Part shown: positions 29,541 through 53,041 of the stretch, in pieces
Numbering within the stretch: position 1 is the first letter of the stretch
Layout: each line of letters starts with the position of its first letter
Origin: Candidatus Woesearchaeota archaeon
GTDB lineage: Archaea; Nanobdellota; Nanobdellia; Woesearchaeales; ARS49
NCBI GenBank assembly: GCA_003599055.1
Contig: QZIM01000019.1
Span: forward strand, 1-53,041
Direction: 5' to 3'
Length of the DNA: 53,041 nucleotides
Translations under genes and position numbers: made by a program
Notes under the pieces: generated by a model
What the model saw: only the letters and a program-made list of their open reading frames with translations
Told to the model about the DNA's origin: nothing
The model's database searches: none

Positions 29541-29544
29541 AAAC

Positions 29545-30616: not shown

Positions 30617-33600
30617 ATGAAAGGGGTGGAATTTGCAGTCGTAGGAATAGTTCTTCTTGCAGCAATCGGCGCGCTCTCCTTTCTCGCACTTGATGAAACC
30701 CCTGAATTCTTCCAACAATCACCATCCGCATTCGCAACCGCAAGCCTGCCACCGCCATACCTTGCACCGCAACAATCACCGCCCCCCCGCGCACAACCCC
30801 TTGCGACACGCTCAATTCCAAGCGCGCTCACCGGCTATGCAACAAGCGATGCGCCCCTGCCGCCTTCCTCACCATCGTCCATTTCTTCAGAACGAAGCAT
30901 CAGCCTCACACCCGTCACCAGCTGCCCGGACACCCTTCTTACTCCGGGAGAAACATACCAACTCTCCAACGACATCGGCCCCTTTGACGGCACCTGCATC
31001 ACTATCGCAGCCGACGGCATCACCCTTGACTTCAACGGGTTCACCATTGTTGGAGATGCAAACGGAGCAGACCTCGAATACGGCATTGAAGTCTTTGCCA
31101 ACGGCGCCACCATCATTAACTCCAGTTTAATCAATTTCACCCGCGGAATCCAGGCAGACACGGTAAGCGGGCTTCGCATTATCGGCGGAACCATCGGCAC
31201 CATCGGGCCTGCCAGTGATGCAACCAATGACAACACGGGTTACGGAATATTCCTTAACCGTGTTCCTTTTTTCCACATAGAAAATCTAACAATTACTGAT
31301 GTTCGGGGAAGTACGTCGGGCGGTTCGGCAAACGCAGAAGGCATCCACATCCAGGACAGCAGGTCAACAGGAAACATCACCAATGTGACCATCTTTGACA
31401 CTCCTGCCGGCGCAACCAGCACCATCGGAATCAGCGTTGCCGCAAGCAACCTTACCGTCACGCGCGTGAACGTCCGCAATATGACCGGCAACGCGGTTTC
31501 GCTCACCGCCGCATCAGGAATCACAAACACACTCCAAGACAGCAACGCAAACTCAACCATCAGCATCACCGGCAATAATCTTACCATCACCAACAATACC
31601 GTCACTCAGGGAGAACTGCTCACGTCGACCGGAAACAACTACTACATCTTCAACAACACTGTCTCGCGCCGCCAAGCAGGCCTTATCATCAACGGGCTCT
31701 CCGCCACCATCGTCCAAAACTACACCATCGCAAACAACACTATCAGCGTCCACTCCGCCCAGGCAAACGGCCTTCTCCTCTCGCAACGCGGCGGCAACGC
31801 AACAGTTGCAAACAATACTGTGGTCGTCAACGGCACCACCTTAAGCCGCGGGCTCTGGCTCCAATCAACATCAGGAAGCCAAATCCAAAGCAACATCACG
31901 TTTGCAAACCTCTCCATCCTCGGCCTTGGAACAAGCTCAACAGGAATCCGCATCCAGCGCGGCTTTAACCACACGTTCACCACAACCATCGTCAACCTCA
32001 CCGGCGCTCGCCACACAGGAATACAGCTTGAAAACGCATACAACAACACATTCTTCAACATCACCCTTGTCAACAGCACATTCCTCCTCAACCTCTCAAA
32101 CAGCACGGACAACATCTTCACCAACCTCACCGTAAATTCCTCCTTCGGAACCATTGAATACCTTGAGCCAATCAACGCAACAACACAAAACGCAAGCGTC
32201 AATACAACCACATTTGCAATCACAAGCAACCTCAGCTTTGTCAACACAACCAACCTCACCTTCCTTAACGAAACCGCACGAGTTACACTCAGCGGACTTC
32301 CTTTCACCGACCCGCAAATCCTTGTTGACTTTGAGGATGACGGAACGTTTGCCTCTTGTACTTCGCCGACCTGCAACGAAACAAGCTATGCGGGAGGAGT
32401 GTTTGTTTTTAACGTCTCGAGCTTCACGAGTTATGCTGCGAGCGAGACCAGCGCAGCAGGGTCGTCGTGCGGCAACCCCTTAACTGATTGCTGCACCATC
32501 CAAACCTCCGGTGCGTACACTCTTGCCAATGATATCTCTGACCCCGGCGTCATCGGTGGGGACGGGTGCATTAATATCACCGTTGACAACGTTAACCTTG
32601 ACTGCCAAGGATTCCTCATCGAAGGAAGCGAGGGGGTCGGCACCATAGGCATCCTCATCGACAACAGCAGTGTCGCATCCCTCAATAACATCATTGTCAG
32701 AAACTGCCTCCTGTCCTTTTGGGACAACGGCCTTAACATCAGGCGCACTGAAAACTCCAGCTTCACCAACAACACAGCATTCAACAACACCATCGGCATC
32801 CTCAGCTCATCCGGAGGCAGTTGCACCAACTGCACCTTTACAGATAACACGCTTGAAAACCACACCCAAAGCGGCATTATGCTCGCTGGGGGCAGCAGCA
32901 ATACCCTCAGAAACAACCGCGCAGCATTCAACCTCAACTGGGGAATCCGCCTTTTCAACGACGACAATAGCATAGTCACCCAAAACACCCTTATCGAGAA
33001 CGGAATAGAATCATTTGCCGTCACGCTCTGGAACGGAACAGACTGGCAGGACGCGGGCGAACTCCACTTCCCCGGAACATACACTGAAAAAACACTCCTC
33101 CTGCCACAACCCGCCACGGCAATCAGGCTCGCCCACTTCGGCACGGACACCGCACATATTGACCTTGCACTCCTCGACGGGCAGGCACCTTCTGCCGCGC
33201 TTGACGCGCCTTCAAACAAAACGCAGCCAACCTCAAAACTTGCGGCAAACGACCACGACGTCATCAGCGCCCACCACACCACAACCGAACTCACATTCCC
33301 AAAACCCGGGCAAACCCTGCGCCTCATTGCCGCAGAAGAAGACCTCCTTGGCATTCCCTTCTCGTGGCCGGATAACGGCCACTTTCCCTATGCCCCTCGA
33401 GAAACCCAATACCACTCCGACCATTGGTACCCTTCCTCAAACCACCCGGCAGGACCCGTCACGGCAACCATCACCGCCAATTCCACCCATCTTACCGCAT
33501 TCCTTGACATCGGCGTTGATAACACCTACGACCCGAACGAAGACTGGGCGGAAATCAGAATCACCAACAAAACCTATCGGGTCACCGCTCATGACACCCG

Positions 33601-36600
33601 CTGGGGCACCCAAAATTTCACGTACACCGCCCTTGTCCTCTACGAACACAAGACCGTCCTCTTCGTAATCCCCCTTGCAGAACTTGACCAAATTGAACAA
33701 CCGCTCCTCATCCAATTCGGCTATTACGGAACCGCGGCAAGCGCGCCCGACTCAGGCATCCTTGTCGAACAGGACGCACAAAACGTTGACGTCTTTGCCA
33801 ACACCCACGACGGTGATGAGAATGGCATCATCTTCCACGTCACCTCAAACAGCCGCGCATACAACAATACCATCTCGAGCACGCTTGATGCGGGAATCCA
33901 AATACTCCTTGTTGAAACGAGTAACATCACCAACAACAGCATAACCGTCGCCGACCGCGGAATCGTCGTCGGAGGCTCAAACGCAAACCTCATCACAAAC
34001 CACTCCCTCCAACAAATTGCCACCACCGGCATAGACGTCGGCCCATTCAGCGCCGTTGACACGACCAACATCATCTTTAACAACACCAACGTCACAGACC
34101 CCCTCACCGGCGCATCACTTGACACCACCACAAACATCACCCTCATCAACACCAATCTCACCAACACGCAAACCGGCATCTTCCTTACCGGAACCACCGA
34201 CACCTTCTTCAACCAAACCGTCATTGAAAGCACAAACCTGTGGATAGACATCAGCTCCGGCGGAACCACGAACAACCAGTTCAACGACACCACCTTCCTT
34301 AACCGCAGCGCAGGAAGCATCCGCATCCCCGGAAACGCAACCATAAGCGACCTCTTTACCGTTGAAACCGTTGACTTATTCATCCAAAACAACCGAACAC
34401 TCCTTGACTCCGCAACCTATCCCTTCTTCAACCAAAGCGCAATCATCACGCTCTTTGGACTCCCCTTCACCAACCCGCAACCGCTCGTTGACCTTGAAGA
34501 CGACGGCACGTTTGCCGTTTGCTCCATCGGCAGCCAGTGCGACGAAATCAGCTACACGGGAGGCACGTTTGCATTTAACGTATCACGCTTCACAGGATAT
34601 GCGGCAAGTGAAGGGCCGTTCACATTCACCTGCCCCACTCTCCTTAACCAATCTGCAATGATGACTGAGAACCTCACGTGTGACGGGACTGCCGTTATCA
34701 TCAATGCCGATAACGTTGAACTTGACTGCGCGGGCTTTTTCATCAACCACTCCAATGTTGATGATGAAACATACGGCATTGTTGCAAGCGTGCGAAACAA
34801 CATCACCATCCGCAACTGCAACGTTCTTTTGGGAAGCCCTGACCCGTTCCAGCCCCACAACATCTTCCTCAATTACACGAACAACAGCGTTATTGTAAAC
34901 ACGAGCGCGGTTGCGGACAGCGACAGCCAATCCGACGCGCTCCGCATGAACCACGCATACCACAACCTCGTTCACAACAGCACCCTGCGAGGAGATGTCG
35001 GCTCGGGAGCCACCCTGTTTAACTCGTCAAACAACACGCTTGAAAACCTGACCGGCATCAGCGACAGCTTCTACGGCCTTTGGTTCGAAGCATACAGCAG
35101 CAACAATGTTGTCCGCAACTACACTGCCCTCACGGACAGCTCAGAAGCAATACGGCTTGAGATTCAAAGCAACAACAACCTCTTTGAAAACGTCAGCGGC
35201 ATTGCAACGAACGACCAGGGAATTGAAATCGTCACCCTTGAGAACCTTACCGTGCGCAACAGCCAGTTCCGCGGCGTCTTTGGCGACGCGTTCCGCCTTG
35301 TCTTTACGAACCACACGCTCGTTGACAACGTCAGCGCGGTCACCACATCCGGATTCGGCCTTGACCTTGACCGCGCAGTCAACGCAACCATCACCAACTC
35401 CTACTTTGAAAGCTTCGATAACTGGGTTGTTATGATTCGCGAAGCAGCAGGGCAAAACAACCTCACGAACGTCAGCATTGCAACAAACACCGGCGTCCCC
35501 TTGCGCTTTGGCCAAGTCAGCGCGCCACCGCAAAACAACACCTTTGACAACATCACCCTCACCATCAACACCAGCTCAGGCGCGAGCTGGATACAAACAA
35601 CAACCGCAATAACCAACAACACGCTCCGCAACATCCTCTTTAACGCAAGCAACGGTACGATTTTGATTGTTAACGCATCAGATGTGCCAACCGGCGTTGA
35701 CCTTACCGCTGCACACCTTAACGTCAGCTACAACAACTCATTCCTTAACAGCTCAAACGGCAACGCAAGCTGGCTGAACGCAACAGGACAAATAACACTC
35801 TACAACATCGCATTCACCGACCCGCAACCGCTCGTTGACTTTGAAGACGACGGGACATTTGCTGCCTGCAGCCCTCCTGACTGCACTGAAGTCAGTTTTG
35901 CCGGTGGAACATTCATCTTTGACGTCACTCACTTCACGAGCCACTCTGCGAGCGAGACTGTCAGCAGCACCGGCTGCCCATTCCTCATCAACGGAACCTA
36001 CACGCTCACGCAAAACATCACCTGCCCCGCTACTGCAGTTGAGTTCACCGCAGGAGACGCAATACTGGACTGCGCAGGATTCACCATTGAATGGAACACA
36101 AACGGAACCACCGGAACATCCGGCATCCTTGCAGAAAATAAAACCGGCATCACCATCCAAAACTGCACCATCGCAAGCGGCACAGAACTTGGCGCATTTG
36201 AGTCCGCGGTCAACTTCACCAACGTCTCACACGCAACACTCACCCGCTCCAGCCTCAGAACCAACGGCAGCGAGCAAAACTTCGGGCTCTTCCTTGACAG
36301 AACCGTTAACATCTCACTCCAACACAATATGATAACCGTCAACGGAACCGGAGGCGCTTCGCGCGGCGTTCGCGCAATAGATGCGATACTTCTCACGTTC
36401 GCAAACAACACCCTCCTTGTGAATGACACCGGAGGCTCTGCGCGCGGCCTTGACCTTGAAAGCACGGTAAACAACTCGGTGATTTCGAACAACACCATTC
36501 TTGTCAACAGCTCAGGAAGCGGCTCCAACGGTGCAATTGAGCTTGTGCGCGCAACAAACCTCACAATTACCAACAACACTATCCAGGTATTCGGGTTCAC

Positions 36601-39205
36601 CGGCACGGACGTCGGCATAGACTTTGATGCGGGACCCAACGAGCGCATCACCATCACCGACAACCGCATCAGCACCAACAGCACCTTTGGTGGGGCAAAC
36701 GACGCAATCAAGCTTGACTCAGGACAACTGCACCACGCTGTCATCGCCGCAAACACACTCGATGCCCGCGGCAACTCCGGCTCGAACCGCGGAATCCAAA
36801 TAACGGTGACCAAAAACAACATCACCGCAGCAAACAACACCATCCGCACCAACAGTGCAAGCACCGGCTCAAACTTCGGCATACAGTTCACCGGAACCAC
36901 TGAAAACAGCACCATCTTCCAGAACAACATTACCACCAACGCAACCACATCCGGCTCAAATGTCGGAATCAGATTCACCGGAACTACCAATGATACCACC
37001 GTCGCATCAAACATTGTTCTCACCGACTTTGGCGGGTCAAACTTCGGCATTGCTTTCACCAGCGCAATACGGACGGTCAATGTCACCAACAACACGGTTT
37101 GGACGTTTGGAGCAGGCAGCAGCAACGTTGGCATCCGCCCAACCGGAGGAGCCACCCTTTTGCGCATCGAAAACAACACCATTCGCACAAGCAACGAGAC
37201 AGATAACTACGGAATTGAGACCCGCGGCATCATAGACTCAACCATTGCACGCAACGTCATTGCGACCAGCGGACGAAACAGGAACAGGGGAATTGACATC
37301 AACACCGCCGGCGGAACCATGGTCGCCCGCCTCACCATTGAAAACAACACCATCAGCACGACCGGAGTTGAAGGCGCAAATGACGGCATCCGTCTCAACG
37401 GCCCAACGGTCAGTCTTGACAACAGCACCATTTTCGGCAACACGATTTCCACCAACGGAACAAGCCAAAACCACGGCTTCCAGCTGAGCGGCGCCCGCCT
37501 CTTTAATAACACGTTCTCCGACAACAACATCACTGCCCGCGGCACGCTCAGCTACGGCATCCTCATCCTCAATGCAAACAACTCTCAGTTCACTAACACA
37601 CTTCTTAACGACACCGCAGAATGGATTAACTCAAGTGCGTTCACCTTCACCAACCTCACCAACACAACCTTTGCCACTCCAAACGGCAGCATCCGCATCC
37701 CCAACCTCTTTAACCTCAACGGAACGCAAGATCTCAACCGCAGCAGGCTTAACATATCGTTCAACAACAGCTTCGTCAACAGCACCAACCTTAGCTTCAT
37801 TAACCAATCAGCACAACTTACCCTAAACGCAATCGCATTCACTGACCCCGCACCAATTGCCGACCTTGAAGACGATGGCACATTTGCATCCTGCCCTGAA
37901 CCCCAGTGCACCGAAGTCAGCTATGACGGAAGCACATTCATCTTCAACGTTTCAAGCTTTACAAGCTATGCGGCTGCAGAAAGCGCAAGTACGGGAATCA
38001 TTAACCTCACATTTGACAAGATTGATTCTCCTGACCCGGTTGTTCGCGGAACCGCGCTCAATTACACAATCGAGATTAACAACACGGGAAATGCGACTGC
38101 TGAGAACCTGACTGTTGTTGAAAGCTATTCTGCGGGCGTGAGCTTTGCTTCATCAAGCCCTGCGCCCGACCTTGGCAACAACACGTGGAACTTGGGCAAT
38201 CTGAGCAACGGCAGCACGACCACGATAAACATCACCGTCATCGTCGGCTCAACTTTGACAAACGGAACAGTCCTCAACAACTCGTATGACGTCTCATTCC
38301 AAAACAGTACCGGCGGAACAACGAGCGCGAATGATTCAGAACTTACAACGGTACTTGGCGTTGCCACACTTACGGTAACAAAGACTGACTCACCTGACCC
38401 TGTGAACAACGGAAGCACGCTGAGCTATACAGTAACGGTCACCAATGCGGGTGATGAAATCGCGTACAACATCACGGTCATTGAAGGGTATGATGTGAAC
38501 ATCACATTTAACGGCTCAAGCCCTGCGCCAACGCTCGGCAACAACACGTTCTCGCTTGGCAATTTGACACCCGGCGCGAGCACGACACTCAACATTACCG
38601 TTAATGTTAGTTCAGCGATGACTTCAGGCGTTCTGAACAACACGGTCAACGTCACGTTCACGAATCTGACGGGCGACAATACAACCGTAAGCGCGTTCCA
38701 AGGAACCGCCGTGACCACGCCATTTATCCCACCACCCGCGCCCGTCGGCGGCGGAGGAGGCGGCGGAGGAACAAACCTCTTCCGCAACGCAAACATTACC
38801 CGCAACGTTCCGCAAGTATTGCAACCGGTCAGCTGGCCAACCGTTGCACGTTCGCAAGAACCACCTGTCCCCGTTCCTGCACAAACCCAAGAAAAAACAC
38901 AAACGGCCGAAAGCCAAACCTTAACAGAGCCCCCTCAACAGGCGCGCCCCTTGGTCGGACAAAGCATTTCCGAACCGCGAGAAGGACGGTCTGTTTCAAC
39001 TGCAGTACTTGCAGTGCTTGGAATAATCATTTTAGCAGTTGTTCTTGCAGTTATCATCCTTGGACGCAGGACACGACCCCCAAAAACGCAATCACTGCAA
39101 ATCGTAAAACCCCAAGAACTCCACACCACACTCAAAAAACTCAGTTCAGAAGTCAAAAGCGCAAACCGGCTCCTGCGCGAATTTGACAAGAAGTTTAAAA
39201 AGTAA
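30617..39205 (+). CDS. Giant surface protein 1: four beta-helix modules, DUF11 repeats, membrane anchor (2862 aa)
   Basis: The layout is: N-terminal membrane helix (about 6-25); Pro/Ser-rich linker; four right-handed parallel beta-helix modules (NosD/PbH1-like repeats of NNTI and GIxL rungs); two DUF11 domains (about 2461-2699, SPDPV...G start); Gly-rich hinge; PQVLQPVSWPTVAR; membrane helix (about 2793-2817); cytoplasmic tail of ~45 residues. Each module ends in a cap such as LVDFEDDGTFASC...FNVSSFTSYAASE (nt near 32320, 34490, 35830, 37855). A non-helix beta domain is inserted at about 799-1033. N-x-S/T sequons are very dense. It likely forms a long filament for adhesion or as outer coat. 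TTTATATAG (30586-30594) is 27 nt before the ATG. Confidence 0.85.
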   Translation: MKGVEFAVVGIVLLAAIGALSFLALDETPEFFQQSPSAFATASLPPPYLAPQQSPPPRAQPLATRSIPSALTGYATSDAPLPPSSPSSISSERSISLTPVTSCPDTLLTPGETYQLSNDIGPFDGTCITIAADGITLDFNGFTIVGDANGADLEYGIEVFANGATIINSSLINFTRGIQADTVSGLRIIGGTIGTIGPASDATNDNTGYGIFLNRVPFFHIENLTITDVRGSTSGGSANAEGIHIQDSRSTGNITNVTIFDTPAGATSTIGISVAASNLTVTRVNVRNMTGNAVSLTAASGITNTLQDSNANSTISITGNNLTITNNTVTQGELLTSTGNNYYIFNNTVSRRQAGLIINGLSATIVQNYTIANNTISVHSAQANGLLLSQRGGNATVANNTVVVNGTTLSRGLWLQSTSGSQIQSNITFANLSILGLGTSSTGIRIQRGFNHTFTTTIVNLTGARHTGIQLENAYNNTFFNITLVNSTFLLNLSNSTDNIFTNLTVNSSFGTIEYLEPINATTQNASVNTTTFAITSNLSFVNTTNLTFLNETARVTLSGLPFTDPQILVDFEDDGTFASCTSPTCNETSYAGGVFVFNVSSFTSYAASETSAAGSSCGNPLTDCCTIQTSGAYTLANDISDPGVIGGDGCINITVDNVNLDCQGFLIEGSEGVGTIGILIDNSSVASLNNIIVRNCLLSFWDNGLNIRRTENSSFTNNTAFNNTIGILSSSGGSCTNCTFTDNTLENHTQSGIMLAGGSSNTLRNNRAAFNLNWGIRLFNDDNSIVTQNTLIENGIESFAVTLWNGTDWQDAGELHFPGTYTEKTLLLPQPATAIRLAHFGTDTAHIDLALLDGQAPSAALDAPSNKTQPTSKLAANDHDVISAHHTTTELTFPKPGQTLRLIAAEEDLLGIPFSWPDNGHFPYAPRETQYHSDHWYPSSNHPAGPVTATITANSTHLTAFLDIGVDNTYDPNEDWAEIRITNKTYRVTAHDTRWGTQNFTYTALVLYEHKTVLFVIPLAELDQIEQPLLIQFGYYGTAASAPDSGILVEQDAQNVDVFANTHDGDENGIIFHVTSNSRAYNNTISSTLDAGIQILLVETSNITNNSITVADRGIVVGGSNANLITNHSLQQIATTGIDVGPFSAVDTTNIIFNNTNVTDPLTGASLDTTTNITLINTNLTNTQTGIFLTGTTDTFFNQTVIESTNLWIDISSGGTTNNQFNDTTFLNRSAGSIRIPGNATISDLFTVETVDLFIQNNRTLLDSATYPFFNQSAIITLFGLPFTNPQPLVDLEDDGTFAVCSIGSQCDEISYTGGTFAFNVSRFTGYAASEGPFTFTCPTLLNQSAMMTENLTCDGTAVIINADNVELDCAGFFINHSNVDDETYGIVASVRNNITIRNCNVLLGSPDPFQPHNIFLNYTNNSVIVNTSAVADSDSQSDALRMNHAYHNLVHNSTLRGDVGSGATLFNSSNNTLENLTGISDSFYGLWFEAYSSNNVVRNYTALTDSSEAIRLEIQSNNNLFENVSGIATNDQGIEIVTLENLTVRNSQFRGVFGDAFRLVFTNHTLVDNVSAVTTSGFGLDLDRAVNATITNSYFESFDNWVVMIREAAGQNNLTNVSIATNTGVPLRFGQVSAPPQNNTFDNITLTINTSSGASWIQTTTAITNNTLRNILFNASNGTILIVNASDVPTGVDLTAAHLNVSYNNSFLNSSNGNASWLNATGQITLYNIAFTDPQPLVDFEDDGTFAACSPPDCTEVSFAGGTFIFDVTHFTSHSASETVSSTGCPFLINGTYTLTQNITCPATAVEFTAGDAILDCAGFTIEWNTNGTTGTSGILAENKTGITIQNCTIASGTELGAFESAVNFTNVSHATLTRSSLRTNGSEQNFGLFLDRTVNISLQHNMITVNGTGGASRGVRAIDAILLTFANNTLLVNDTGGSARGLDLESTVNNSVISNNTILVNSSGSGSNGAIELVRATNLTITNNTIQVFGFTGTDVGIDFDAGPNERITITDNRISTNSTFGGANDAIKLDSGQLHHAVIAANTLDARGNSGSNRGIQITVTKNNITAANNTIRTNSASTGSNFGIQFTGTTENSTIFQNNITTNATTSGSNVGIRFTGTTNDTTVASNIVLTDFGGSNFGIAFTSAIRTVNVTNNTVWTFGAGSSNVGIRPTGGATLLRIENNTIRTSNETDNYGIETRGIIDSTIARNVIATSGRNRNRGIDINTAGGTMVARLTIENNTISTTGVEGANDGIRLNGPTVSLDNSTIFGNTISTNGTSQNHGFQLSGARLFNNTFSDNNITARGTLSYGILILNANNSQFTNTLLNDTAEWINSSAFTFTNLTNTTFATPNGSIRIPNLFNLNGTQDLNRSRLNISFNNSFVNSTNLSFINQSAQLTLNAIAFTDPAPIADLEDDGTFASCPEPQCTEVSYDGSTFIFNVSSFTSYAAAESASTGIINLTFDKIDSPDPVVRGTALNYTIEINNTGNATAENLTVVESYSAGVSFASSSPAPDLGNNTWNLGNLSNGSTTTINITVIVGSTLTNGTVLNNSYDVSFQNSTGGTTSANDSELTTVLGVATLTVTKTDSPDPVNNGSTLSYTVTVTNAGDEIAYNITVIEGYDVNITFNGSSPAPTLGNNTFSLGNLTPGASTTLNITVNVSSAMTSGVLNNTVNVTFTNLTGDNTTVSAFQGTAVTTPFIPPPAPVGGGGGGGGTNLFRNANITRNVPQVLQPVSWPTVARSQEPPVPVPAQTQEKTQTAESQTLTEPPQQARPLVGQSISEPREGRSVSTAVLAVLGIIILAVVLAVIILGRRTRPPKTQSLQIVKPQELHTTLKKLSSEVKSANRLLREFDKKFKK
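32281..32450 (+). other. First copy of the module cap domain (DFEDDGTF cap)
   Basis: A recurring ~50-residue unit closes each beta-helix: hydrophobic strand, LxFTDPQPLVDFEDDGTF, two cysteines 4-7 residues apart, E-x-SYxGG-x-F-x-F-N-V, then S-x-FTSYAASE. Ten clear copies occur in the two giant genes. The acidic DFEDDGT could bind calcium and the two Cys could form a disulfide. I know of no named domain for it. Confidence 0.7.
38168..38240 (+). repeat. 73-nt identical segment shared with giant gene 2 (copy 1)
   Basis: These 73 nt inside the first DUF11 repeat are identical to 51115-51187 in the next gene, without even synonymous change, while flanking DUF11 sequence has diverged. Recent recombination or gene conversion between the two genes is the simplest explanation. 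Confidence 0.85.
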
Positions 39206-39261
39206 TTCTCGGAAGCTTTATAAACTCAAAAATTCTTTTTGTGCGTAAAGGGGAATGGTAT

Positions 39262-45200: not shown

Positions 45201-48200
45201 CAACGTTACCGTTGAGAACTGCATTATTGTAGACTGGGCGACAGGAATATCCTACGAACTCAGCAATGACGGCATTGCGCAAAACAACACCATCATTAAC
45301 ACCCCTGCCTCCCTCACTCTTCTTGAAGGCAACCGAACCCTCGTCCAACACAACACGGTCAACAGCACCAACGGAGGAATGAGCGTTACCGGAAACACCT
45401 TTGCGCCAACCATCAACCACACGCTTTACAACAACACGATTGATGCTTCGGGCGGCTCGTGCATCCTCCTTGCAGGATACACTGACGTCGTCACGGCAAT
45501 CGTCCAGGACAACACGGTCTTTCACTGCAATGATGCACTATCCATCGGAGCCGCAAGCGAAGCCCGAGTCGAAAACTTCACCGCGTACAACTCCAGCACA
45601 ATCAGCGTCTCAAACGCAGCCCAAGCCACACTTACCAATATCTTTATGCACGGCAGAGGAACCTTCCAAAGCGACAGCAGCATTACTACAGTTACAAACC
45701 TCTACATCGCAAACGCCACGGGCGGCCTCAACTTGCAGAATTCAAGTGGCTTCCCCGCAAGCGGAAGCGAAACCATCCAGCTCACCAACGTAACCGTCCT
45801 CTCTGAAACCCCGCAATGGATGACCTCAAGCGGATTTGAAGGGACGGACAGTACCATCACGAACTTTACCTTCGGGAATCACAACGGCTCAGTCACGTGG
45901 GCCGGAACCTACGCGCTTCCAAACTCCGCCACGGTCGGCAACCCCGGCACAGGAGAACTCGGCTTTAACATCACCCAAAACCTCACCCAACTCAACAGCA
46001 CCGCGCTATCATTCCTTAACACCAGTGCAAGAGTATCGCTTCTTGGGCTCTCTTTGCTCAATCCAAGCATTGTTGTTGACTTTGAAGACGACGGAACGTT
46101 CGCTTCGTGCCCACCGCCCCAGTGCGAAAACCTCACCTCAACCTTTGGCAACATCACCTTTGACGTTCTCAGCTTCACCGGCTATGCCGCAAGCGGAACC
46201 AGCGCAATCACTGCCTGCCAAAACATCAACACCCCCGGCGAATACAACCTCGGAACAGACCTTGCCACCGGCGGAACCTGCTTTAACATCACCGCAAGCA
46301 ACGTCACCCTCAACTGCAACGGCTTCACCCTCACCGGAACGAACGGCAGTGACACCTTCGGCGTCAACGTCACCAACTCAACCAACGTGACCGTCCGCGA
46401 CTGCACTTTCCGCCACTTCGAATCAGGACTCCTCTTCAACAACGCAAACAATAGCATTGCCCTCAACAACAGCGCACTTGAAAACCTCGACGCAGGACTC
46501 TTCCTCTTCGCAAGCTCCAACAGCACCTTCCAAAACAACACCGCGCAAAACAACCAAAACCACGGCATCGCCGTTGCGGTCAGCACAAACAACATCCTTG
46601 CAGGAAACAACGCCCTCAACAACCAATTCAACAACTTCCGCATCACCGGCAGCACCAACAACACCTTCCTTGCAAACTATCTGAACGGCCTTGACTCAAC
46701 CGGGCTCGGATTCAGCCTTGCATTCGCCGCACAAAACAACACACTCATTTCAAACACCATCACCAACCACACCCGCGGCGTCAGCATCATAGAGACAACC
46801 AGCGACACCGGCAACACCATCACATCAAACCTCATTGAAAACCACTCTGATACGGGCATCTCCTCATTTGCCAACCAAACCCACGCGTCCAACAACACCA
46901 TCCGCTCCAACGCGCAGGGAATCTCCATCGGCGGCGCCGGCGGCTTTAACTCAACCGTTACCGGAAACACGATAGAAAACAACACCGGCACCGGCATTGG
47001 CATCGGCACAACCAGCGCAGGAACCATCATCACCGACAACATCGTTCGCGGAAACACCGATTCAGGACTTTCTTTAGGATTTAGCACCACCCACGCCGCC
47101 CACCGCAACACGTTCACCCAAAACCTCAACGGCATCGAAATCACCGGAAACGGCGACAACGGAACCTACACTGACAACACCTTTGTCAACAACACCAATG
47201 CGGCAATCATCATCTCCTCAAGCGGAAACAACACCTTCACCGGAACCAACATCACCATCAACACGGCAACAAGCGCGCGCTGGCTCGAATCCGGAACCAC
47301 CCTTGCAAACAACCAATTCGAACGCACCCTCTTTAACACCACCAACGGCAGCATCCTCATCATCCCCTCCGTCACGCTTCCCAGCCAAACCAACATCAGC
47401 ACGAGCAACCTTAACATCACAAGCAACCTCAGCACGCTCAACAGCACAAATATCAGCTTCCTTAACACTACTGCGCAAATTACTCTGAGAGGACTTAACT
47501 TCACAGACGCTCAGGCATACGCCGACTTTGAGGATGACGGAACATTCGCGGTATGCAACCCGCCGCAATGCACCGAAATAAGCTACGCGGGCGGGACTTT
47601 CGTGTTCAACGTGTCAAGCTTTACGAGCTATGCTGCGAGTGAGGCAACCGTATCAGGAGCGTGCACCACCTCGCCAAACATTACTTCCTGCTGCAACATC
47701 ACTTCACCCGGCGCGTACCACATTGCCGGCGACATCATTGAAAACGGCATTGGAACGTGCATCACGTTCCACTCAGGAGACGCCACTCTTGACTGCCTTG
47801 GCTCAACAATTGAGGCAGACAACCCGATAGCAACCAACCTTGTCAGCAACATTGCAACCCGCAACTGCATCATCAACGCAACCGCATCAGACGGCATTGC
47901 CATCAGCACATCCAACGACGAGAACATCACCTTTGATAATCTTACCATCATCATCGGAAGCGGACGCGCAATTACCGTCGACCCCAACCTCTCCGACACC
48001 GTCTCACGGGACCTGCGCATCACCAACACCTACATCGAACAAAGCTCCGCCAGCCCCGGTATTGCAATCGACTACATTGAAAACGCGCTTCTTGAAAACA
48101 ACACCGTCTTTGGCGGCGGATTCTCAGGCGCCCTGCAAATGACCGGCACCAACAACATCACAATTCGCAACAACAGCCTTTGGGACTGGGCGAGCGGCGC

Positions 48201-51200
48201 AAGCCTGAGCCTCACCGCAAACAACAGCCTTGTCATCAATAACAGCATGACCAGCAACTTACAACGACCGCTTGTCATATTCGGAAACAACAACACCTTC
48301 ATCAACAATATCCTCGAAACAAACAACACCTGGATACTCACCGATATTACCGCCGAGAACAACACGTTCACCAACACCACTTTCCTTAACCGCTCATCAG
48401 GAAGCGTACGCATTGACAACTTCACGATGCCTGCCGATACATCCTGGATGGATGTGACGTTCCTTGACGTCCACGACAACCGCAGCCACGTCAACACAAA
48501 CAACCTCACCTTCGCCAACAGCTCCGGCATCATCACGCTCTTTAACACCACATTCACCGACCCGCAACCCCTCATTGACATTGAAGACGACGGAACATAT
48601 CTTCCCTGCAGTGCACCTGAATGTGAAGAACTCAGCCACATCGGAGACATTTTTGTCTTCAACACATCACACTTCACGAGCCACGCGGCAAGCGAAACTC
48701 CCTTGGTCAGCAACTGCACACAAGTCATTAATTCTTCAACCACGCTTCTTTCAGGAATTTCGTGCCCGGAAACAGCGGTCCTTATCGCGCAGGATAATGT
48801 TACTCTTGACTGTGCGGGCAACACCATTGAATTTGACACTGCGGGCGGCGGATTTGACAGCGGAATCATTGCATTTGGTCGCAACAATATTACTCTTGCC
48901 AACTGCATCATCTCAGACCCCACTGAAAACGGGTCGAACTCATTTGGCATCAACCTTACCGGAACAGTTCTGTCAACAGTTCAGAATAACACCGTTGTGA
49001 GCAATGCCTCCTCAAACAGTTCAGGAATTTTCATCCACCAGTCCAGCGAAAACAACACCATTGAAAATAACACGGTCACCATGAACGGGCAGGGAGGAAA
49101 CCTTTCCTCGCTCCACTTCTTTACCGAGCCGCGCTCACCCATGATTTTGCGCACACTTGATGCCGGACGAACAAACATCCAACCCCACCTTGCCATTGAC
49201 TCTGACAATAACGTTCACGTTGTCGCAGCCTGCCGCACTGCCGAGATATTCACCGGCTTTGTCTGTTACGAGAAACTTGACAACGAAGGCAGGGTACTCT
49301 TCAACGATTCCTTCTTCCTCACTAATGATGAAGAACCCATCCGCACGCCCTTCCTTGCCATCACGGGCAACGATACCCTGTTTGTTGTCTTCACCGGCAA
49401 TGACGTCGGCGGCGGAGACCCCAACCAAGTTGAAACCATCATGGCAAAATTCCTCAAAAACGGAACAATCCTTGAAGGAGACAGCTTTGCCATCAACATC
49501 ACCCCTGATGAAATCGCCCGCTCCATCAATATGCGCATCGTTCCCGACAGCCAAGGAAAACTCCAGGCAGTTTGGAGCGACGAAGGAACAACCGGCGGCG
49601 GCAGCGACCAGTTCAGACTCCGCTACACCCGATTCAATGACTCGTACACCAGCATCGGCGGACCATTCTCCAGCTTCCAAAACCTCTCAACCGTTCGCGA
49701 AATCATTGAAAGCGAAACAAACGACAGCCAAACCGACCGGCTCGGATTCGACATCGCCGTCGACCGCCTCGACAACGTTCACCTCGTCTTCCGCAACGAA
49801 GACCGCGACCGCATCCTCTATATGCTCATCAACGGCACAAGCCCAACCAGCCAAGTACTCATCGCCCCAACCATCATCACCAACACCACCCTTGCCTTCT
49901 CAAACTTCCCCCAAATCGTCGTTGATGATGACCTGGTCGCGAGCGTCACAATCCACGATGAAAGCATAGGAATCGAAAGCTACATCACGCAGCTTGACCC
50001 TTACAATGAAAGCCTTGACGGCAGCAATTCCAGCCTTGCCACCATCGTTCGACGCAATATGGTTCCGCTCAGCATCAATGACGGCCAGCGGTCAGTCACT
50101 CCCGCAATTGACATTGACCGCCTCGGCAACCTCCACATTGTCTGGAAAGAAGAATCGGTCGGAGCCAACGGCGGAATCGTGTACACGCTGCTCGACCGCG
50201 ACCTCAACGTTCTCGTCCCGCAAACAACCCTCAGCAACTCAACCTCAAATGTCTTTGGCCCCGGCAGCCCTCCGGTGAAGCCATTCATCAAAATCGACAG
50301 GACCCAACGCGCACACGTTGTCTGGCACGACTTTGCCGGAACAGACTCAGTCTACTACGCCAACATCCCTTCCGGCAGCTCACGCAACTTCGTTCACAAC
50401 AATGTTCTCAATGGAAACGGACACGCACTTCTCGTCCAAAACGCAAACAACAACACCTTCACCAACCTCCACCTTCGCACAATAAACACCAGCAATTTTG
50501 CCATCCTTGTCAACGACTCAACCAACACCAGCATCCAACACGCCACCCTCAACAACACTTACGGCTGGCTCAACATCACCAACAGCACCACCAATATCAC
50601 GAACACCACCTTTGCGACCGACAACGGCAGCATCAGGTACAACGGAAGCCTGCTCCTCAACGAAACAACCATCACCCAACAACAACTCAACACCACACTC
50701 AACCTCAGCTTTGCCAACAGCACCAGCATACCATCCCTTAACACAACCGCACAAATCACCCTGAACGGCATCGGCTTTACCGCGCCGCAACCGCTTGTTG
50801 ACTTTGAAGACGACGGCACGTTTGCCATCTGCAGCGCACCCCAGTGCATTCAGCAGAGCTATGCAGGCGGCGTTTTGGTCTTTGACGTTTTGAGCTTTAC
50901 CAGCTATGCTTCCGCGGAAAGCATTGCCAACGCGAGCGCGGGAATCATCAACCTCACCTTCGATAAAACTGACACCCCTGACCCTTCCCCTCGCGGTTCC
51001 TCCCTGAGCTACCAGATTCAAATCAATAACACGGGTAACGCGACTGCAGAGAACGTGACGGTTGAAGAACTTTATCCTTCTGATGTGAGCTTTGCCTCAT
51101 CAAGCCCTGCGCCTGACCTTGGCAACAACACGTGGAACTTGGGCAATCTGAGCAACGGCAGCACGACCACGATAAACATCACCGTCACTATCGGCAGCAC

Positions 51201-52536
51201 GCTTGCCAACGGAACCGTTCTCAACAATACGTTCATCGTGAACTTCACCAACAGCTCAGGAAGCATCACAACCGGCAATGACAGCGAACTCACAACCGTC
51301 CTTGGCGCGCCTGTGCTCGTCAGCATAAAATCAGATTCACCTGACCCGGTTATTCGCGGTCAGCAGCTCAATTATTCGATTTTGATTAACAATACAGGCG
51401 ATGATACTGCGTTTAACGTCAGCCTGACTGAGAATTACCCCGGCGGAGTATCGTTTGTTTCGGCACAGCCAACACCTCTTGGCAACGGCACGTTCAGCAT
51501 CGGAACACTTGCGCCAAACGAATCGTTTGTCGTGAACGTTACCGTGACCGTTGGCGCGAACGTGGCCAACGGCACGATATTGAACAACTCAGTGAACGCA
51601 AGCTGGCGTAATGTCAGCGGTGAACAGGGCGGAGTATCTGACAGCGAGCTCACCACAGTCCTTGGCATTGCAAGCATTACCGTGACGAAAACAGACAGTC
51701 CAGACCCGGTCACTAACGGAAGCGTTTTGAGTTATCAGATAACTGTTACCAACACGGGCGATGAAGTCGCGTACAACGTGACTGCAGTTGACGGATATCC
51801 TGCAAATGTCAGCTTGGGAACAACCAGCCCTGCACCCGCTGTTGGCAATAACACGTTCTCGCTTGGCAATTTGACACCCGGCGCGAGCACCACACTCAAC
51901 ATCACTGTTACCGTCGATGGCAATATGACGGCAGGAATAGTGAACAACACTGTGAATGTGACCTTTGAAAATGCCACAGGAGAAACAGACCAGTTCAACG
52001 CGTTCCAGGCAACGACTGTTACCACGCCCGCGGTCCCCGCAGCGCCGTCCGGAGGCGGAGGCGGCGGCAGCAACCTCTTTAGGACTGCGAACATCACGAG
52101 AAACGCACCGCAGATTCTCCAACCGGTCAGCTGGCCAACCGTTGCGCCTCAAGCCGCCCCTGCGCCTCAACAGACAACGGAAAAAACCATTCAAGAAGAA
52201 ACCGTGCAAGAGCCTCTGCTCGCTCCTGCGAATACTGAAACTCAACCTGCAGAAACCACTTCCCCCGGTCCCGTGGTTTCAGAACAAAAACGCACGACCG
52301 CAACTGCACTCGGAACACTCCTTTTCCTTCTTGCACTTATTGCAGTCCTCATCCTTGCCCGCAAAAAACAACAAAACCCCGCCGGTTTGCAATCCAAAAC
52401 CCCAAAAATCCCCCGATTTGAACGCGTCCGCGTGCACCCGCCAACTTCTCACCGGGCAGACCTCAAAAAAATTGACCAAGATATTGAACGCATCAACAAA
52501 CTCATTCGCGACGCGGACAGAAAACTTAAGCGATAA
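39262..52536 (+). CDS. Giant surface protein 2: six beta-helix modules with lectin-like and propeller inserts (4424 aa)
   Basis: The layout is: N-terminal membrane helix (about 11-30); cadherin/Ig-like domain (LNQPP...DPEGD...VSDGTNTIAKP, about 35-125); acidic linker; six beta-helix modules each ended by the same cap (nt near 42290, 43975, 46078, 47520, 48568, 50800); a LamG/lectin-like domain (about 1675-1876, AYQFDGLDDTI, YTLSAWVRY, GLIDEAIIFNRSLS); a propeller insert (about 3282-3706) with seven IDxxxNxHVVW-type blades; three DUF11 domains (nt 50941-52015); Gly-rich hinge; QILQPVSWPTVAP; membrane helix; tail. Start is the ATG at 39262 with AAGGGG upstream; GTG at 39241 is too close to CTTTATAAA (39216-39224). 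Likely an adhesin or coat filament with sugar-binding inserts. Confidence 0.85.
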   Translation: MYKRGSWRAVALLALFFVWVFALATLHAYGPSGLQTLNQPPYQISSEVLVNGTTSSLQLLDYFGDPEGDVLSFTSDDPAILTQGYTLTFTAPPETGQEYTATITVSDGTNTIAKPITFTSITSFSHTPTETITSETAVSEEKTAPEPEQPLRGTLEQQTESTAPQTAAQDTPSVSGGKTISVVCTDCGDCTTCLGTDGNTCTLSGAISAAGTCITSMVSNTILDCLGFTLTYNTGAGTGNFGITVGSAENITIRNCDVVDGTTGGSNLVGLILSGTRNATVHDNIFRANGTQRNRGVELSGTTFVKLQNNNIYAEGSTGGNAALNITGGEANATIAGNVLYAEGTGGTNFGLQLNVVGPLLFSNNTIEMGSIRASGDMRHVTLNQNALNGSIALFGILGSTIINNSIENNTITGTLSLGASGTVSNNVSENRIFQNNINANLSTGISLTATNSTYIISNTVTGGTGISLSTSSRNVTLDANTITLIGTGNGINIRRTSLNFPYTPSVAIGHNISTTNTINGSAVFYYGGAGASPACPGGTLTSPAASHITFVQCDGVTLEDFAPIDPITIINSTNIRMQRLTLTKGLDSNGTGITLHNSTITRTSTSSNDGSLTDGSNYFIENNTFSFTDTNYVIGFAGFGVDYSIRNNTFVVRGGVQPTGILIDGQRFTVINNSVDVFATTGGSAFGLDWDASHSTVENNTIIANGSGGCCMEAITVSTVNNINVSVRNNRIVADDDGTGTCCNYAINGAGHSWTIESNNVSVNGSDCCNEGFIIDGSNVIVNNNALSVEGANCCHYGLDFSSGVRNNQSVTNNILSVFGFGADSDNFGIYFGTVDTANITNNQVRVTGTGGSHGAISLDAGIRVTAQNNTLFVNGTGSRGIWLTSTSNNNLFIGNNVSTADGATYALSIEAAQTNNSFVNTTLNNTQYWINTLAGSTTQFNNTWFLGPNSSVNITSFTLSGATTLGRNNINLFENRTFVNTANVSALNSSGIITLLNAPFTEPRPRVDYNDDNIFAVCRAPTCTIINDSNQTFTFSVSHFTSHSAAQRTSADDCPFLINGTYTLTQNVTCPETGILIQASNLVLDCAGFTVEYGTDGLFDSHGIFAENRQNITIQNCNIAAGSALGSQRFGILLRSTDSSNITNNTIQTNGEYNSVGIALNPSANNNYVANNFIVTTGNGSDNIGIDLFTAAQNNTVASNTVETNGTSTNVGIRLFSNSNNNSVINNTIQTNGSDNNHGIQLLSSLNNTIQNNTVRTAGSGVALSNNSGIRVDSSNTTLVHGNSVSTDGTGRNIGIRVFSSRQNTVSSNIVRPFATDLDAQGIYVSSDSDENLITQNDIATNGTGSWNWGLIIDSDSDDNNATFNTIITNGTNNNHGLKVEFSAYRNNIRNNNITARGTGTNNFGIVNSWTSDNNTFENNIVHSEGTTSHGIRVSSFTNNSQWNNNTISTSGTNSFGINIGTTPGGGGSGGGGADRNFFTDTRIVNVSQWISVIGSNTTNFTNTTFENLNGSINIPLNFSLAGTLNVTKNELNISLNNSYLNSTNITAMNTSAIITLRDLSFTNPQPLVDFEDDGTFAVCAIGSQCDEIAYDGENYTFNVSSFTSYAASETSAGNTPPSITQVILNSTDGSGAALNTSSPEENLTVVIVNATDADADPVQNITDWRINGTSITLLNLPFETNSSNTAIGGLRDYRTSNRTVTLGDNVSGQEPAWTTLGQVGGAYQFDGLDDTITADLDGPSDPYTLSAWVRYTGGAFDAFNVIMEFGDDSPFFGLDAGQLTLFGAVTDPSALALNQWHLVTYTFNGTQSVLYVNGTVVDNQTATPASGGTELGIGYHGTDDPWEGLIDEAIIFNRSLSQAQINALYQDGTARRHMTTLASPELALTDSWTVAVTPNDQQPNTDGTTVVSNNVTIQEDLGDPCPGTVSLDLTLTNNIDGTTLGGGNCIDTATPNIVIDCAGFTLLGDNTSTAVYVSSADNVTVENCIIVDWATGISYELSNDGIAQNNTIINTPASLTLLEGNRTLVQHNTVNSTNGGMSVTGNTFAPTINHTLYNNTIDASGGSCILLAGYTDVVTAIVQDNTVFHCNDALSIGAASEARVENFTAYNSSTISVSNAAQATLTNIFMHGRGTFQSDSSITTVTNLYIANATGGLNLQNSSGFPASGSETIQLTNVTVLSETPQWMTSSGFEGTDSTITNFTFGNHNGSVTWAGTYALPNSATVGNPGTGELGFNITQNLTQLNSTALSFLNTSARVSLLGLSLLNPSIVVDFEDDGTFASCPPPQCENLTSTFGNITFDVLSFTGYAASGTSAITACQNINTPGEYNLGTDLATGGTCFNITASNVTLNCNGFTLTGTNGSDTFGVNVTNSTNVTVRDCTFRHFESGLLFNNANNSIALNNSALENLDAGLFLFASSNSTFQNNTAQNNQNHGIAVAVSTNNILAGNNALNNQFNNFRITGSTNNTFLANYLNGLDSTGLGFSLAFAAQNNTLISNTITNHTRGVSIIETTSDTGNTITSNLIENHSDTGISSFANQTHASNNTIRSNAQGISIGGAGGFNSTVTGNTIENNTGTGIGIGTTSAGTIITDNIVRGNTDSGLSLGFSTTHAAHRNTFTQNLNGIEITGNGDNGTYTDNTFVNNTNAAIIISSSGNNTFTGTNITINTATSARWLESGTTLANNQFERTLFNTTNGSILIIPSVTLPSQTNISTSNLNITSNLSTLNSTNISFLNTTAQITLRGLNFTDAQAYADFEDDGTFAVCNPPQCTEISYAGGTFVFNVSSFTSYAASEATVSGACTTSPNITSCCNITSPGAYHIAGDIIENGIGTCITFHSGDATLDCLGSTIEADNPIATNLVSNIATRNCIINATASDGIAISTSNDENITFDNLTIIIGSGRAITVDPNLSDTVSRDLRITNTYIEQSSASPGIAIDYIENALLENNTVFGGGFSGALQMTGTNNITIRNNSLWDWASGASLSLTANNSLVINNSMTSNLQRPLVIFGNNNTFINNILETNNTWILTDITAENNTFTNTTFLNRSSGSVRIDNFTMPADTSWMDVTFLDVHDNRSHVNTNNLTFANSSGIITLFNTTFTDPQPLIDIEDDGTYLPCSAPECEELSHIGDIFVFNTSHFTSHAASETPLVSNCTQVINSSTTLLSGISCPETAVLIAQDNVTLDCAGNTIEFDTAGGGFDSGIIAFGRNNITLANCIISDPTENGSNSFGINLTGTVLSTVQNNTVVSNASSNSSGIFIHQSSENNTIENNTVTMNGQGGNLSSLHFFTEPRSPMILRTLDAGRTNIQPHLAIDSDNNVHVVAACRTAEIFTGFVCYEKLDNEGRVLFNDSFFLTNDEEPIRTPFLAITGNDTLFVVFTGNDVGGGDPNQVETIMAKFLKNGTILEGDSFAINITPDEIARSINMRIVPDSQGKLQAVWSDEGTTGGGSDQFRLRYTRFNDSYTSIGGPFSSFQNLSTVREIIESETNDSQTDRLGFDIAVDRLDNVHLVFRNEDRDRILYMLINGTSPTSQVLIAPTIITNTTLAFSNFPQIVVDDDLVASVTIHDESIGIESYITQLDPYNESLDGSNSSLATIVRRNMVPLSINDGQRSVTPAIDIDRLGNLHIVWKEESVGANGGIVYTLLDRDLNVLVPQTTLSNSTSNVFGPGSPPVKPFIKIDRTQRAHVVWHDFAGTDSVYYANIPSGSSRNFVHNNVLNGNGHALLVQNANNNTFTNLHLRTINTSNFAILVNDSTNTSIQHATLNNTYGWLNITNSTTNITNTTFATDNGSIRYNGSLLLNETTITQQQLNTTLNLSFANSTSIPSLNTTAQITLNGIGFTAPQPLVDFEDDGTFAICSAPQCIQQSYAGGVLVFDVLSFTSYASAESIANASAGIINLTFDKTDTPDPSPRGSSLSYQIQINNTGNATAENVTVEELYPSDVSFASSSPAPDLGNNTWNLGNLSNGSTTTINITVTIGSTLANGTVLNNTFIVNFTNSSGSITTGNDSELTTVLGAPVLVSIKSDSPDPVIRGQQLNYSILINNTGDDTAFNVSLTENYPGGVSFVSAQPTPLGNGTFSIGTLAPNESFVVNVTVTVGANVANGTILNNSVNASWRNVSGEQGGVSDSELTTVLGIASITVTKTDSPDPVTNGSVLSYQITVTNTGDEVAYNVTAVDGYPANVSLGTTSPAPAVGNNTFSLGNLTPGASTTLNITVTVDGNMTAGIVNNTVNVTFENATGETDQFNAFQATTVTTPAVPAAPSGGGGGGSNLFRTANITRNAPQILQPVSWPTVAPQAAPAPQQTTEKTIQEETVQEPLLAPANTETQPAETTSPGPVVSEQKRTTATALGTLLFLLALIAVLILARKKQQNPAGLQSKTPKIPRFERVRVHPPTSHRADLKKIDQDIERINKLIRDADRKLKR
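51115..51187 (+). repeat. 73-nt identical segment shared with giant gene 1 (copy 2)
   Basis: Identical to 38168-38240. It encodes the LGNNTWNLGNLSNGSTTTIN core of a DUF11 repeat. A second near-identical stretch lies at about 51848-51903 versus 38539-38594. Confidence 0.85.
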
Positions 52537-52594
52537 ATCATCTCGACGATTTATTTGAAAACATTTAAATACTCTTTCTTCTGATTCGGGCTTT

Positions 52595-53041
52595 ATGAAA
52601 AGGGGGGTATTGGTACTGTCAGTAGTATTAGGCATAGCCCTCCTTGGCGGAATATTCTTTTTTTCTTCAAACGGAATTACCGGGCTTCAGACTGTGAATC
52701 AGCCGCCCGCCCAGACGGCGTCATCAGTTCAGGCGACATCAAACCCGTTCACACTCAATTTGAACGAGTATTTCTTTGACCCTGACGGGGATATGCTGAC
52801 TTACACCGTTGATGATGCTGCGCTTACGCTTGATGGGTCACTTCTGACAATTACTCTTGCAGAACCGGTGCCTGCATACGACTTTACCGTTACGGTCAGC
52901 GACGGCACAAACACGATAGCGAAACCATTTACCGTTGAATTCTCAGACGCACTCATCACGGGCGAACCCGCACTAACAAGCGAACCCCTGCCAGAAGAAC
53001 AAACACTGACACCAGAACCCGAACAACCGCTTCGCGGAACC
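52595..53041 (+). CDS. Giant surface protein 3, N-terminal part (runs off the window)
   Basis: The visible 149 residues have an N-terminal membrane helix (about 4-24), NGITGLQTVNQPP, then a cadherin/Ig-like domain with NLNEYFFDPDGDMLTYTVDD and VTVSDGTNTIAKPFTV, and an acidic Pro/Glu linker ending EPEQPLRGT. This matches the first ~160 residues of giant protein 2 closely, including TVSDGTNTIAKP and EPEQPLRGT, so beta-helix modules very probably follow outside the window. CATTTAAATAC (52562-52572) lies about 28 nt before the ATG, so it has its own promoter. Confidence 0.85.
   Translation, partial: MKRGVLVLSVVLGIALLGGIFFFSSNGITGLQTVNQPPAQTASSVQATSNPFTLNLNEYFFDPDGDMLTYTVDDAALTLDGSLLTITLAEPVPAYDFTVTVSDGTNTIAKPFTVEFSDALITGEPALTSEPLPEEQTLTPEPEQPLRGT

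What the first reader, a model, noticed from the sequence alone, without database searches (positions are those of the whole stretch)
30617..53041. Tandem array of giant modular beta-helix surface proteins
Three paralogous genes in a row (2862 aa, 4424 aa, third truncated by the window) take over 22 kb. They share the same order of parts and differ in module number (four versus six) and in inserted domains. For a small-genome archaeon this is a large investment, suggesting an attachment organ or coat. The plan as a whole (anchor at both ends, helix modules with a fixed cap, DUF11 stalk, cytoplasmic tail) is not one I know as a described system.
Basis: partly seen in the sequence, partly recalled or inferred. 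Interest (0 to 1): 0.8.

Follow-up and report, generated by a model that had tools for sequence, protein, structure and literature searches.

The report
Giant archaeal adhesins with nucleoporin-like caps
Three giant neighbouring surface-protein genes of a tiny symbiont-type archaeon are real; they are beads of beta-helix, and the repeated domain closing each bead is a distant relative of the self-cutting domain of the eukaryotic nuclear-pore protein Nup98, a link I could not find described for these archaea.

Summary
The window is one whole contig of a Woesearchaeota-type genome. It carries ORF1 (2862 aa), ORF2 (4424 aa) and a third gene cut by the contig end, same strand, gaps under 60 bp. 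ORF1 and ORF2 have 4 and 6 beta-helix modules, each closed by one cap; then DUF11 repeats, a Gly/Pro linker, a C-terminal TM helix and a short basic tail. They are not chimeras: copies differ at about 30% of bases, and a sister species has a giant cap gene at the same locus. The kind is known in outline (methanogen adhesin-like proteins, SPEARE).

New here: the cap is a branch of the Nup98 autopeptidase (Pfam PF04096, S59)/ZU5/GPS superfamily. PF04096 hits 85 of 279 phylum genomes (24 above cut-off) and no control genome. All 32 such loci that I fetched carry the cap. The reverse profile has only Nup98/Nup145 in its top 19 PDB hits. Ser/Thr at the scissile position is kept in 181 of 186 caps; the catalytic His in only 69 (3 of 10 here). 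I therefore read the caps as mainly structural, a minority possibly self-cleaving, on probably N-glycosylated attachment proteins. Function is inferred.

The parts
30617..39205 (+). ORF1, 2862 aa: N-terminal hydrophobic segment, four beta-helix modules each ending in a cap, two DUF11 repeats, Gly/Pro linker, TM, 47-aa basic tail
39262..52536 (+). ORF2, 4424 aa: N-terminal hydrophobic segment, Ig-like (Big_9) domain, six beta-helix modules with caps, LamG insert, three DUF11-type repeats, Gly/Pro linker, TM, 58-aa basic tail
52595..53041 (+). ORF3, first 149 aa only (contig end); N-terminus paralogous to ORF2 (48% identity), Ig-like Big_9/He_PIG
30635..30691 (+). ORF1 N-terminal hydrophobic segment (signal or anchor)
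   Evidence: hydropathy 2.67
39289..39345 (+). ORF2 N-terminal hydrophobic segment (signal or anchor)
   Evidence: hydropathy 2.33
39373..39597 (+). ORF2 N-terminal Ig-like domain (Big_9, E 5e-4, just under the Pfam cut-off)
32177..32455 (+). ORF1 cap 1 (site motif SFT)
34340..34618 (+). ORF1 cap 2 (RFT)
35687..35965 (+). ORF1 cap 3 (HFT: autopeptidase-type motif complete)
37712..37990 (+). ORF1 cap 4 (SFT)
42139..42417 (+). ORF2 cap 1 (HFT)
43825..44103 (+). ORF2 cap 2 (SFT)
44473..44856 (+). Laminin_G_3 / concanavalin-like domain inserted between modules 2 and 3 of ORF2
   Evidence: PF13385, 7.9e-20
45928..46206 (+). ORF2 cap 3 (SFT)
47374..47652 (+). ORF2 cap 4 (SFT)
48427..48705 (+). ORF2 cap 5 (HFT); its unit was modelled: beta-helix then a beta-rich cap, cap model pLDDT 91
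49090..50130 (+). ORF2: region inside module 6 with no family assignment (weak beta-propeller repeat hit, E 0.055)
50650..50928 (+). ORF2 cap 6 (SFT)
38024..38746 (+). ORF1 DUF11 stalk repeats
50971..52050 (+). ORF2 DUF11/DUF7507 stalk repeats
39005..39061 (+). ORF1 C-terminal TM helix
   Evidence: hydropathy 3.55
39062..39202 (+). ORF1 cytoplasmic tail, 47 aa, 14 K/R against 4 D/E
52303..52359 (+). ORF2 C-terminal TM helix
   Evidence: hydropathy 2.73
52360..52533 (+). ORF2 cytoplasmic tail, 58 aa, 18 K/R against 7 D/E

Best explanation
ORF1-3 belong to a large, fast-evolving family of exported attachment proteins of DPANN archaea. Each mature protein is held in the membrane by its C-terminal TM helix and projects outward: basic cytoplasmic tail, TM, Gly/Pro linker, DUF11 stalk, then a string of four to six right-handed beta-helix beads. 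Each bead is closed at its C-terminal end by a small beta domain with two invariant Cys, derived from the Nup98/ZU5/GPS autopeptidase superfamily. In most copies the cap has lost the catalytic His and serves to end the helix and join it to the next bead; in a minority (HFT/HFS copies, 3 of 10 here) backbone self-cleavage with non-covalent retention is possible. The ectodomain is probably heavily N-glycosylated. Beads multiply and are swapped between paralogues, so reach and binding surface diversify. Shown: architecture, cap homology, sequon excess, lineage-specific duplication. Inferred: surface position, attachment role, the cap's structural role. Not tested: any cleavage.
For: Architecture. 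Model of a cap-helix-cap unit: rungs of short strands, then a beta-rich cap (mean pLDDT 73); cap plus last rungs pLDDT 91, pTM 0.87, with the S-H-F-T site in the turn between the last two strands. Helix part resembles tailspikes and polysaccharide lyases/hydrolases. Cap homology: PF04096 hits 85 of 279 phylum genomes at E<=0.05, 24 over the Pfam cut-off (best 45.1 bits), none of 14 control genomes; own-genome copy C26:6866-7192, E 1.6e-4, is a cap; all 32 fetched PF04096 loci are hit by the cap HMM; single-step link: the window-only profile A1 hits G030:C47:15656 at 4e-8 and PF04096 hits the same domain at 1.2e-9; archaeal profile against PDB: the top 19 sequences are all Nup98/Nup145, E to 8.5e-7; hhalign window caps to PF04096-positive archaeal domains 99.4%, those to Nup98 98.4%, reversed control 0.03%. 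Sequons NxS/T 167 against 69+-7 shuffled (ORF1) and 242 against 118+-10 (ORF2); mirror motif 74 and 124; STT3/AglB in the genome. Relatives keep the TM plus basic-tail design. Caps: 88% between C23 and C26, 79-84% within G001, at most 68% between G000 and G001.
Against: No window cap matches PF04096 by itself (0 of 10); direct hhalign of window caps to Nup98 is only 46%. Foldseek of the cap model finds no significant PDB match; GAIN domains recur in the top 50 but at E above 0.1 and Nup98 is not there. His is absent from 63% of caps. STT3 was not found in three relatives whose cap proteins nevertheless show more sequons than shuffles, and one relative's 3902-aa cap protein is sequon-depleted, so the glycosylation inference is not clean. 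The specific stalk-tail sequence is rare (own genome, G009, weakly G018). No expression, localisation or host data.
Confidence: 0.62

Rival explanations
1. Structural coat: the proteins mainly form a surface layer or shield rather than bind partners.
For: Several large paralogues making up about 6% of the assembly, strong sequon excess, uniform bead-and-stalk design.
Against: Frame lengths vary from about 400 to 10,000 aa within and between relatives, 9 of 29 good-quality relatives lack any cap, and LamG lectin-like inserts are present; an S-layer needs a uniform, abundant protein.
Confidence: 0.15
2. Glycan-active enzymes: the beta-helices are polysaccharide lyases or hydrolases that strip host or environmental polysaccharides.
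For: Nearest solved folds are phage tailspike depolymerases, exopolygalacturonase, inulin fructotransferase, GH110.
Against: All matches are weak (E 8e-5 or worse, TM at most about 0.4) and generic for right-handed beta-helices; Pfam and NCBIfam give only Beta_helix/NosD repeats and no enzyme family over its cut-off.
Confidence: 0.1
3. Self-cleaving surface receptors: caps cut themselves as GPS/GAIN domains do, so that ectodomain pieces are shed or released under pull when cells part.
For: Superfamily membership; Ser/Thr at the scissile position in 181 of 186 motif-bearing caps; HF/HW/HL[ST] in 69 of 186, including 3 of 10 here; the site lies in the last beta-turn.
Against: Most caps lack His, which is a catalytic residue in Nup98 (PMC1560137); the last cap before the stalk is SFT in both ORFs, so full shedding at the base is not supported here.
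Confidence: 0.1
4. Assembly artefact or chimera of repeated modules.
For: The contig ends inside ORF3, and two other contigs that lie wholly inside giant ORFs share exactly 99 identical bases at both ends, an assembler signature.
Against: Module copies in the window differ at about 30% of bases, so short reads can separate them; open frames are unbroken; the sister species has a giant gene in the same place.
Confidence: 0.03

Closest known systems
[quoted passage not shown]
   Same: Repeated right-handed beta-helix domains followed by Ig-like stalk repeats, membrane anchor at the N end, C end or both; many paralogues taking over 10% of those genomes
   Different: Stalk here is DUF11 rather than archaeal Big domain; every helix here ends in a Nup98/ZU5-type cap, which the passages I read do not mention; sequence relationship to ALPs not tested
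SPEARE and other giant membrane-anchored proteins of Nanohaloarchaeota (PMC6642349, PMC10266531)
   Same: Giant DPANN ectodomains with a C-terminal TM, LamG or Ig-type adhesion domains, proposed host attachment
   Different: SPEARE has a large conserved cytoplasmic domain (restriction-type or VirB4/TraG-like); here the cytoplasmic part is 47-58 aa and basic
Nup98/Nup145 autoproteolytic domain (Pfam PF04096, MEROPS S59) and the ZU5/GPS superfamily (PMC3482391)
   Same: Two sequence blocks in the same order (LNxxAxxTL ... FxVxHF[ST]xY), site in the last beta-turn of the model; ZU5 domains already known in large bacterial surface proteins
   Different: Shorter, extracellular, with two invariant Cys; Thr more often than Ser; catalytic His in only about a third; repeated as a helix cap
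Giant1-5 of Apilactobacillus kunkeei (PMC12863079)
   Same: Consecutive genes for 3000-8000 aa surface proteins taking about 6% of a small genome
   Different: Bacterial; no homology tested

Membership tests
Nup98 autopeptidase domain (PF04096, S59) | Profile match over the curated cut-off | tested here: not met
   Window caps: 0 of 10 match; own-genome cap in C26 21.5 bits against a cut-off of 28.4. The wider archaeal cap family does meet it: 24 of 279 genomes
Nup98 autopeptidase domain (PF04096, S59) | Catalytic dyad and scissile motif His-Phe-Ser (HF^S) | tested here: inconclusive
   HFT in 3 of 10 window caps, SFT 6, RFT 1; in 186 caps T/S 181, His 69
Nup98 autopeptidase domain (PF04096, S59) | Self-cleavage of the chain | not testable with these tools
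   needs protein expression
ZU5/GPS/Nup98 superfamily | Homology by sequence profile | tested here: met
   (for the window caps through intermediates)
ZU5/GPS/Nup98 superfamily | Same fold | tested here: inconclusive
   Foldseek not significant; GAIN domains recur in the top 50 at E above 0.1
Archaeal adhesin-like proteins (ALPs) | Repeated right-handed beta-helix domains | tested here: met
[quoted passage not shown]
   DUF11 found instead; I ran no ABD model
Archaeal adhesin-like proteins (ALPs) | Membrane-anchoring domain | tested here: met
   C-terminal TM plus N-terminal hydrophobic segment by hydropathy
SPEARE proteins | Conserved cytoplasmic restriction-type/VirB4-like domain | tested here: not met
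   tails of 47 and 58 aa; no such Pfam hit
SPEARE proteins | At least one laminin-G domain outside | tested here: inconclusive
   one in ORF2, none found in ORF1
Large DPANN murein-transglycosylase proteins (PMC8204110) | Lytic transglycosylase domain | tested here: not met
   no such Pfam hit in ORF1-3

The most novel reading that the evidence does not exclude
The nucleoporin Nup98 self-cleaving domain belongs to an older family of prokaryotic surface domains that DPANN archaea use, in tandem arrays, as beta-helix caps; the HFT/HFS copies are active and cut the giant chain into pieces held together non-covalently, like adhesion-GPCR GAIN domains. The archaeal branch would then help root where a nuclear pore component came from.
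Probability: 0.15. Interest if true: 0.85.

Novelty: new variant of a known kind. Interest (0 to 1): 0.62.

Why it matters
DPANN attachment proteins are mostly 'hypothetical'. This gives a recognisable repeated domain, found in about half of 279 sampled genomes of one phylum and in 37 of 156 of a second, by which giant surface proteins can be annotated. It also puts relatives of the Nup98 autopeptidase, whose members a survey I read lists across eukaryotes only (PMC1560137), into archaeal surface proteins. That makes the domain's prokaryotic side, and the question of self-cleaving archaeal adhesins, directly testable with single purified domains.

Tried and rejected
Chimera/assembly error: rejected for the two complete genes. 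SPEARE membership: rejected (no large cytoplasmic domain). Cap as an unknown archaea-only domain: my first reading, since Pfam, NCBIfam and PDB by single sequence gave nothing; dropped after the profile results. Structure search of the cap in PDB and viral libraries: no significant match. Exact stalk-tail sequence as a family marker: too narrow, although the design recurs. Finding the contig that continues ORF3: the joining 99 bases occur on no third contig of the bin. STT3 absence as a natural test of glycosylation: not clean. A statistical test of the N-terminal TG motif was weak (18 of 154 against 62 of 1019 windows). Viral contigs: no cap relative found with close patterns. Literature: no paper in the library holds both Nup98 and DPANN; older work outside the library (for example Mans et al. 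2004, cited in PMC4071446) could not be read and may already mention prokaryotic relatives.

Full report
WHAT IS THERE. The window is the complete contig C9 (53041 bp) of a 1.15 Mb, 26-contig genome that is 88.7% complete. Named relatives found by the cap profile are 'Candidatus Woesearchaeota' records, one 'Aenigmatarchaeota' record and one unnamed archaeon. Three genes lie in a row on the + strand with gaps of 56 and 58 bp from stop to ATG: ORF1 2862 aa, ORF2 4424 aa, and ORF3, of which 149 aa are present. ORF1 and ORF2 are built alike: N-terminal hydrophobic segment, right-handed beta-helix modules, each closed by a cap of about 93 aa (4 and 6 copies), DUF11 repeats, a Gly-rich then Pro-rich linker, a C-terminal TM helix and a basic tail of 47 or 58 aa. 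ORF2 also has an N-terminal Ig-like domain and a Laminin_G_3 insert.

IS IT REAL. Paralogous stretches are mostly 67-79% identical in DNA, with no long exact repeats, so misassembly of the two complete genes is unlikely. In the same-genus genome G001, orthologues of the three genes upstream of ORF1 (73, 45 and 64% identity) stand together next to a giant cap gene whose N-terminus is of the ORF2/ORF3 type. The end of the contig is a true assembly break. Contigs C23 (13081 bp) and C26 (10219 bp) lie wholly inside giant cap ORFs and share exactly 99 identical bases at both ends, the mark of a graph branch. C9 ends ...PEQPLRGT and both begin GTLETQT, which joins in frame and matches ORF2's PEQPLRGTLEQQT. 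I infer that ORF3 continues into one of them; the connecting piece is not in the bin.

HOW WIDESPREAD. By my sum, the cap-bearing ORFs take at least 73 kb, about 6.4% of the assembly. Caps occur in 24 of 37 relatives, in 149 of 279 genomes drawn across the phylum, and, with the later profile A8, in 37 of 156 genomes of the phylum of the Aenigmatarchaeota-titled record. Complete relatives show the same plan of Pro-rich linker, TM and short basic tail. In two relatives, G012 and G017, cap proteins end instead in VPEFS...TM...R, like a PEF-type sorting signal, and both carry an archaeosortase-family protein, which G000, G001, G006, G009 and G014 lack.

WHAT THE CAP IS. No single window cap matches any informative family. 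A profile of 31 caps gave a weak hit to Nup98 in the PDB (E 0.23), and PF04096, the Nup98 autopeptidase S59, matched 4 of 31 members (best 5e-4). I then searched with PF04096 itself: 85 of 279 genomes have a match at E<=0.05, 24 over the curated cut-off, best 45.1 bits; none of 14 control genomes rings. All 32 such loci that I fetched are also cap-HMM hits. That HMM was iterated, but the window-only profile A1 also reaches the PF04096-positive domain G030:C47 in one step (4e-8). A profile of PF04096-positive archaeal domains, with two window caps added, finds Nup98/Nup145 chains as its first 19 PDB matches (E to 8.5e-7). Profile-profile comparison: window caps to archaeal PF04096-positive domains 99.4% probability, those to Nup98 98.4%, window caps directly to Nup98 46%, reversed caps 0.03%. 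Zhang et al. 2012 (PMC3482391) had already joined Nup96/98, GPS and ZU5 domains in one superfamily and noted ZU5 in large bacterial surface proteins, so the superfamily link to surface proteins is known. The Nup98-type branch as a repeated cap in DPANN giants is what I could not find described.

IS THE CAP ACTIVE. Among 196 distinct caps, 186 have a recognisable motif; the scissile-position residue is Thr or Ser in 181, and His stands two before in 69. In the window HFT occurs in ORF1 cap 3 and ORF2 caps 1 and 5, the rest being SFT or RFT. The cap model (pLDDT 91) puts the site in the turn between the last two strands, as in GPS domains (my knowledge). Foldseek gives no significant match; four GAIN domains among the top 50 are suggestive only. 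Most copies are therefore likely structural; activity in the HFT copies is open.

HOW IT PROBABLY WORKS. Export and anchoring by the C-terminal TM are inferred from sequence. The ectodomain is acidic (224 D/E against 97 K/R in ORF1) and rich in N-glycosylation sequons: 167 against 69+-7 in shuffles for ORF1, 242 against 118+-10 for ORF2, with the mirror motif at the shuffled level. STT3/AglB is in the genome. Cap copies are more alike within a genome (up to 88%) than between G000 and G001 (at most 68%), while neighbouring genes are 45-73% alike, which points to lineage-specific duplication and exchange of beads. I take these as attachment proteins whose length and surface evolve by bead turnover; the target is unknown.

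PLACE AMONG KNOWN SYSTEMS. In kind this is a DPANN counterpart of methanogen adhesin-like proteins (PMC11532034) and follows the general plan of other giant anchored DPANN proteins, but it is not a SPEARE protein. The new element is the cap. Verdict: new variant of a known kind, with an evolutionarily interesting domain.

Noticed in passing
window 52943-53041; contigs C23 (L060) and C26 (L059), both ends: C23 and C26 share exactly 99 identical bases at each end and lie wholly within giant cap ORFs; C9's end joins both in frame. Either two tandem paralogues or two alleles of ORF3; unresolved.
   Followed up: partly
window 30617-30860, 39262-39400, 52595-52700, 28899-29540; L061, L062, L066, L069, L081, L098, L100, L101, L103, L110, L113, L116: A short motif [ILPS]TG[LFMYA] (e.g. 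SPTGLQT, ITGFVV) follows the N-terminal hydrophobic segment in many cap proteins and in a small neighbour protein; cap proteins whose signal looks cleavable seem to lack it. Role unknown.
   Followed up: partly
L104, L105 (G012), L112, L128, L129 (G017): Cap proteins end in VPEFS + TM + basic residues (PEF-CTERM-like), and both genomes have an archaeosortase-family protein (TIGR04178), absent from five genomes whose cap proteins have a plain TM and tail.
   Followed up: partly
L102 / L084 (G009:C21), 3902-aa cap protein: Sequons are depleted (28 against 57+-6 expected) whereas other giants are strongly enriched; it also lacks a C-terminal TM.
   Followed up: no
window 23914-26909: FecR-domain protein followed by a CHASE2 + adenylate/guanylate cyclase protein, an unusual signalling pair for a DPANN archaeon.
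   Followed up: no
window 8149-9639 (- strand): Ser/Thr protein kinase with an FHA domain.
   Followed up: no
window 20097-22593 (- strand): A lamin-tail-domain (LTD) protein and an NPCBM/CARDB protein side by side; both have relatives (47-48%) side by side in L096 (G018:C38).
   Followed up: no
G003, G017, G025: No STT3 found, yet their cap proteins show more sequons than shuffles; a divergent oligosaccharyltransferase or incomplete genomes.
   Followed up: partly
G001:C28 (L066/L076) and window 27410-30331: The giant-gene locus is syntenic between the two species, but the first giant gene has an ORF2-type N-terminus in G001 and an ORF1-type in the window: gene content at the locus turns over.
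   Followed up: partly
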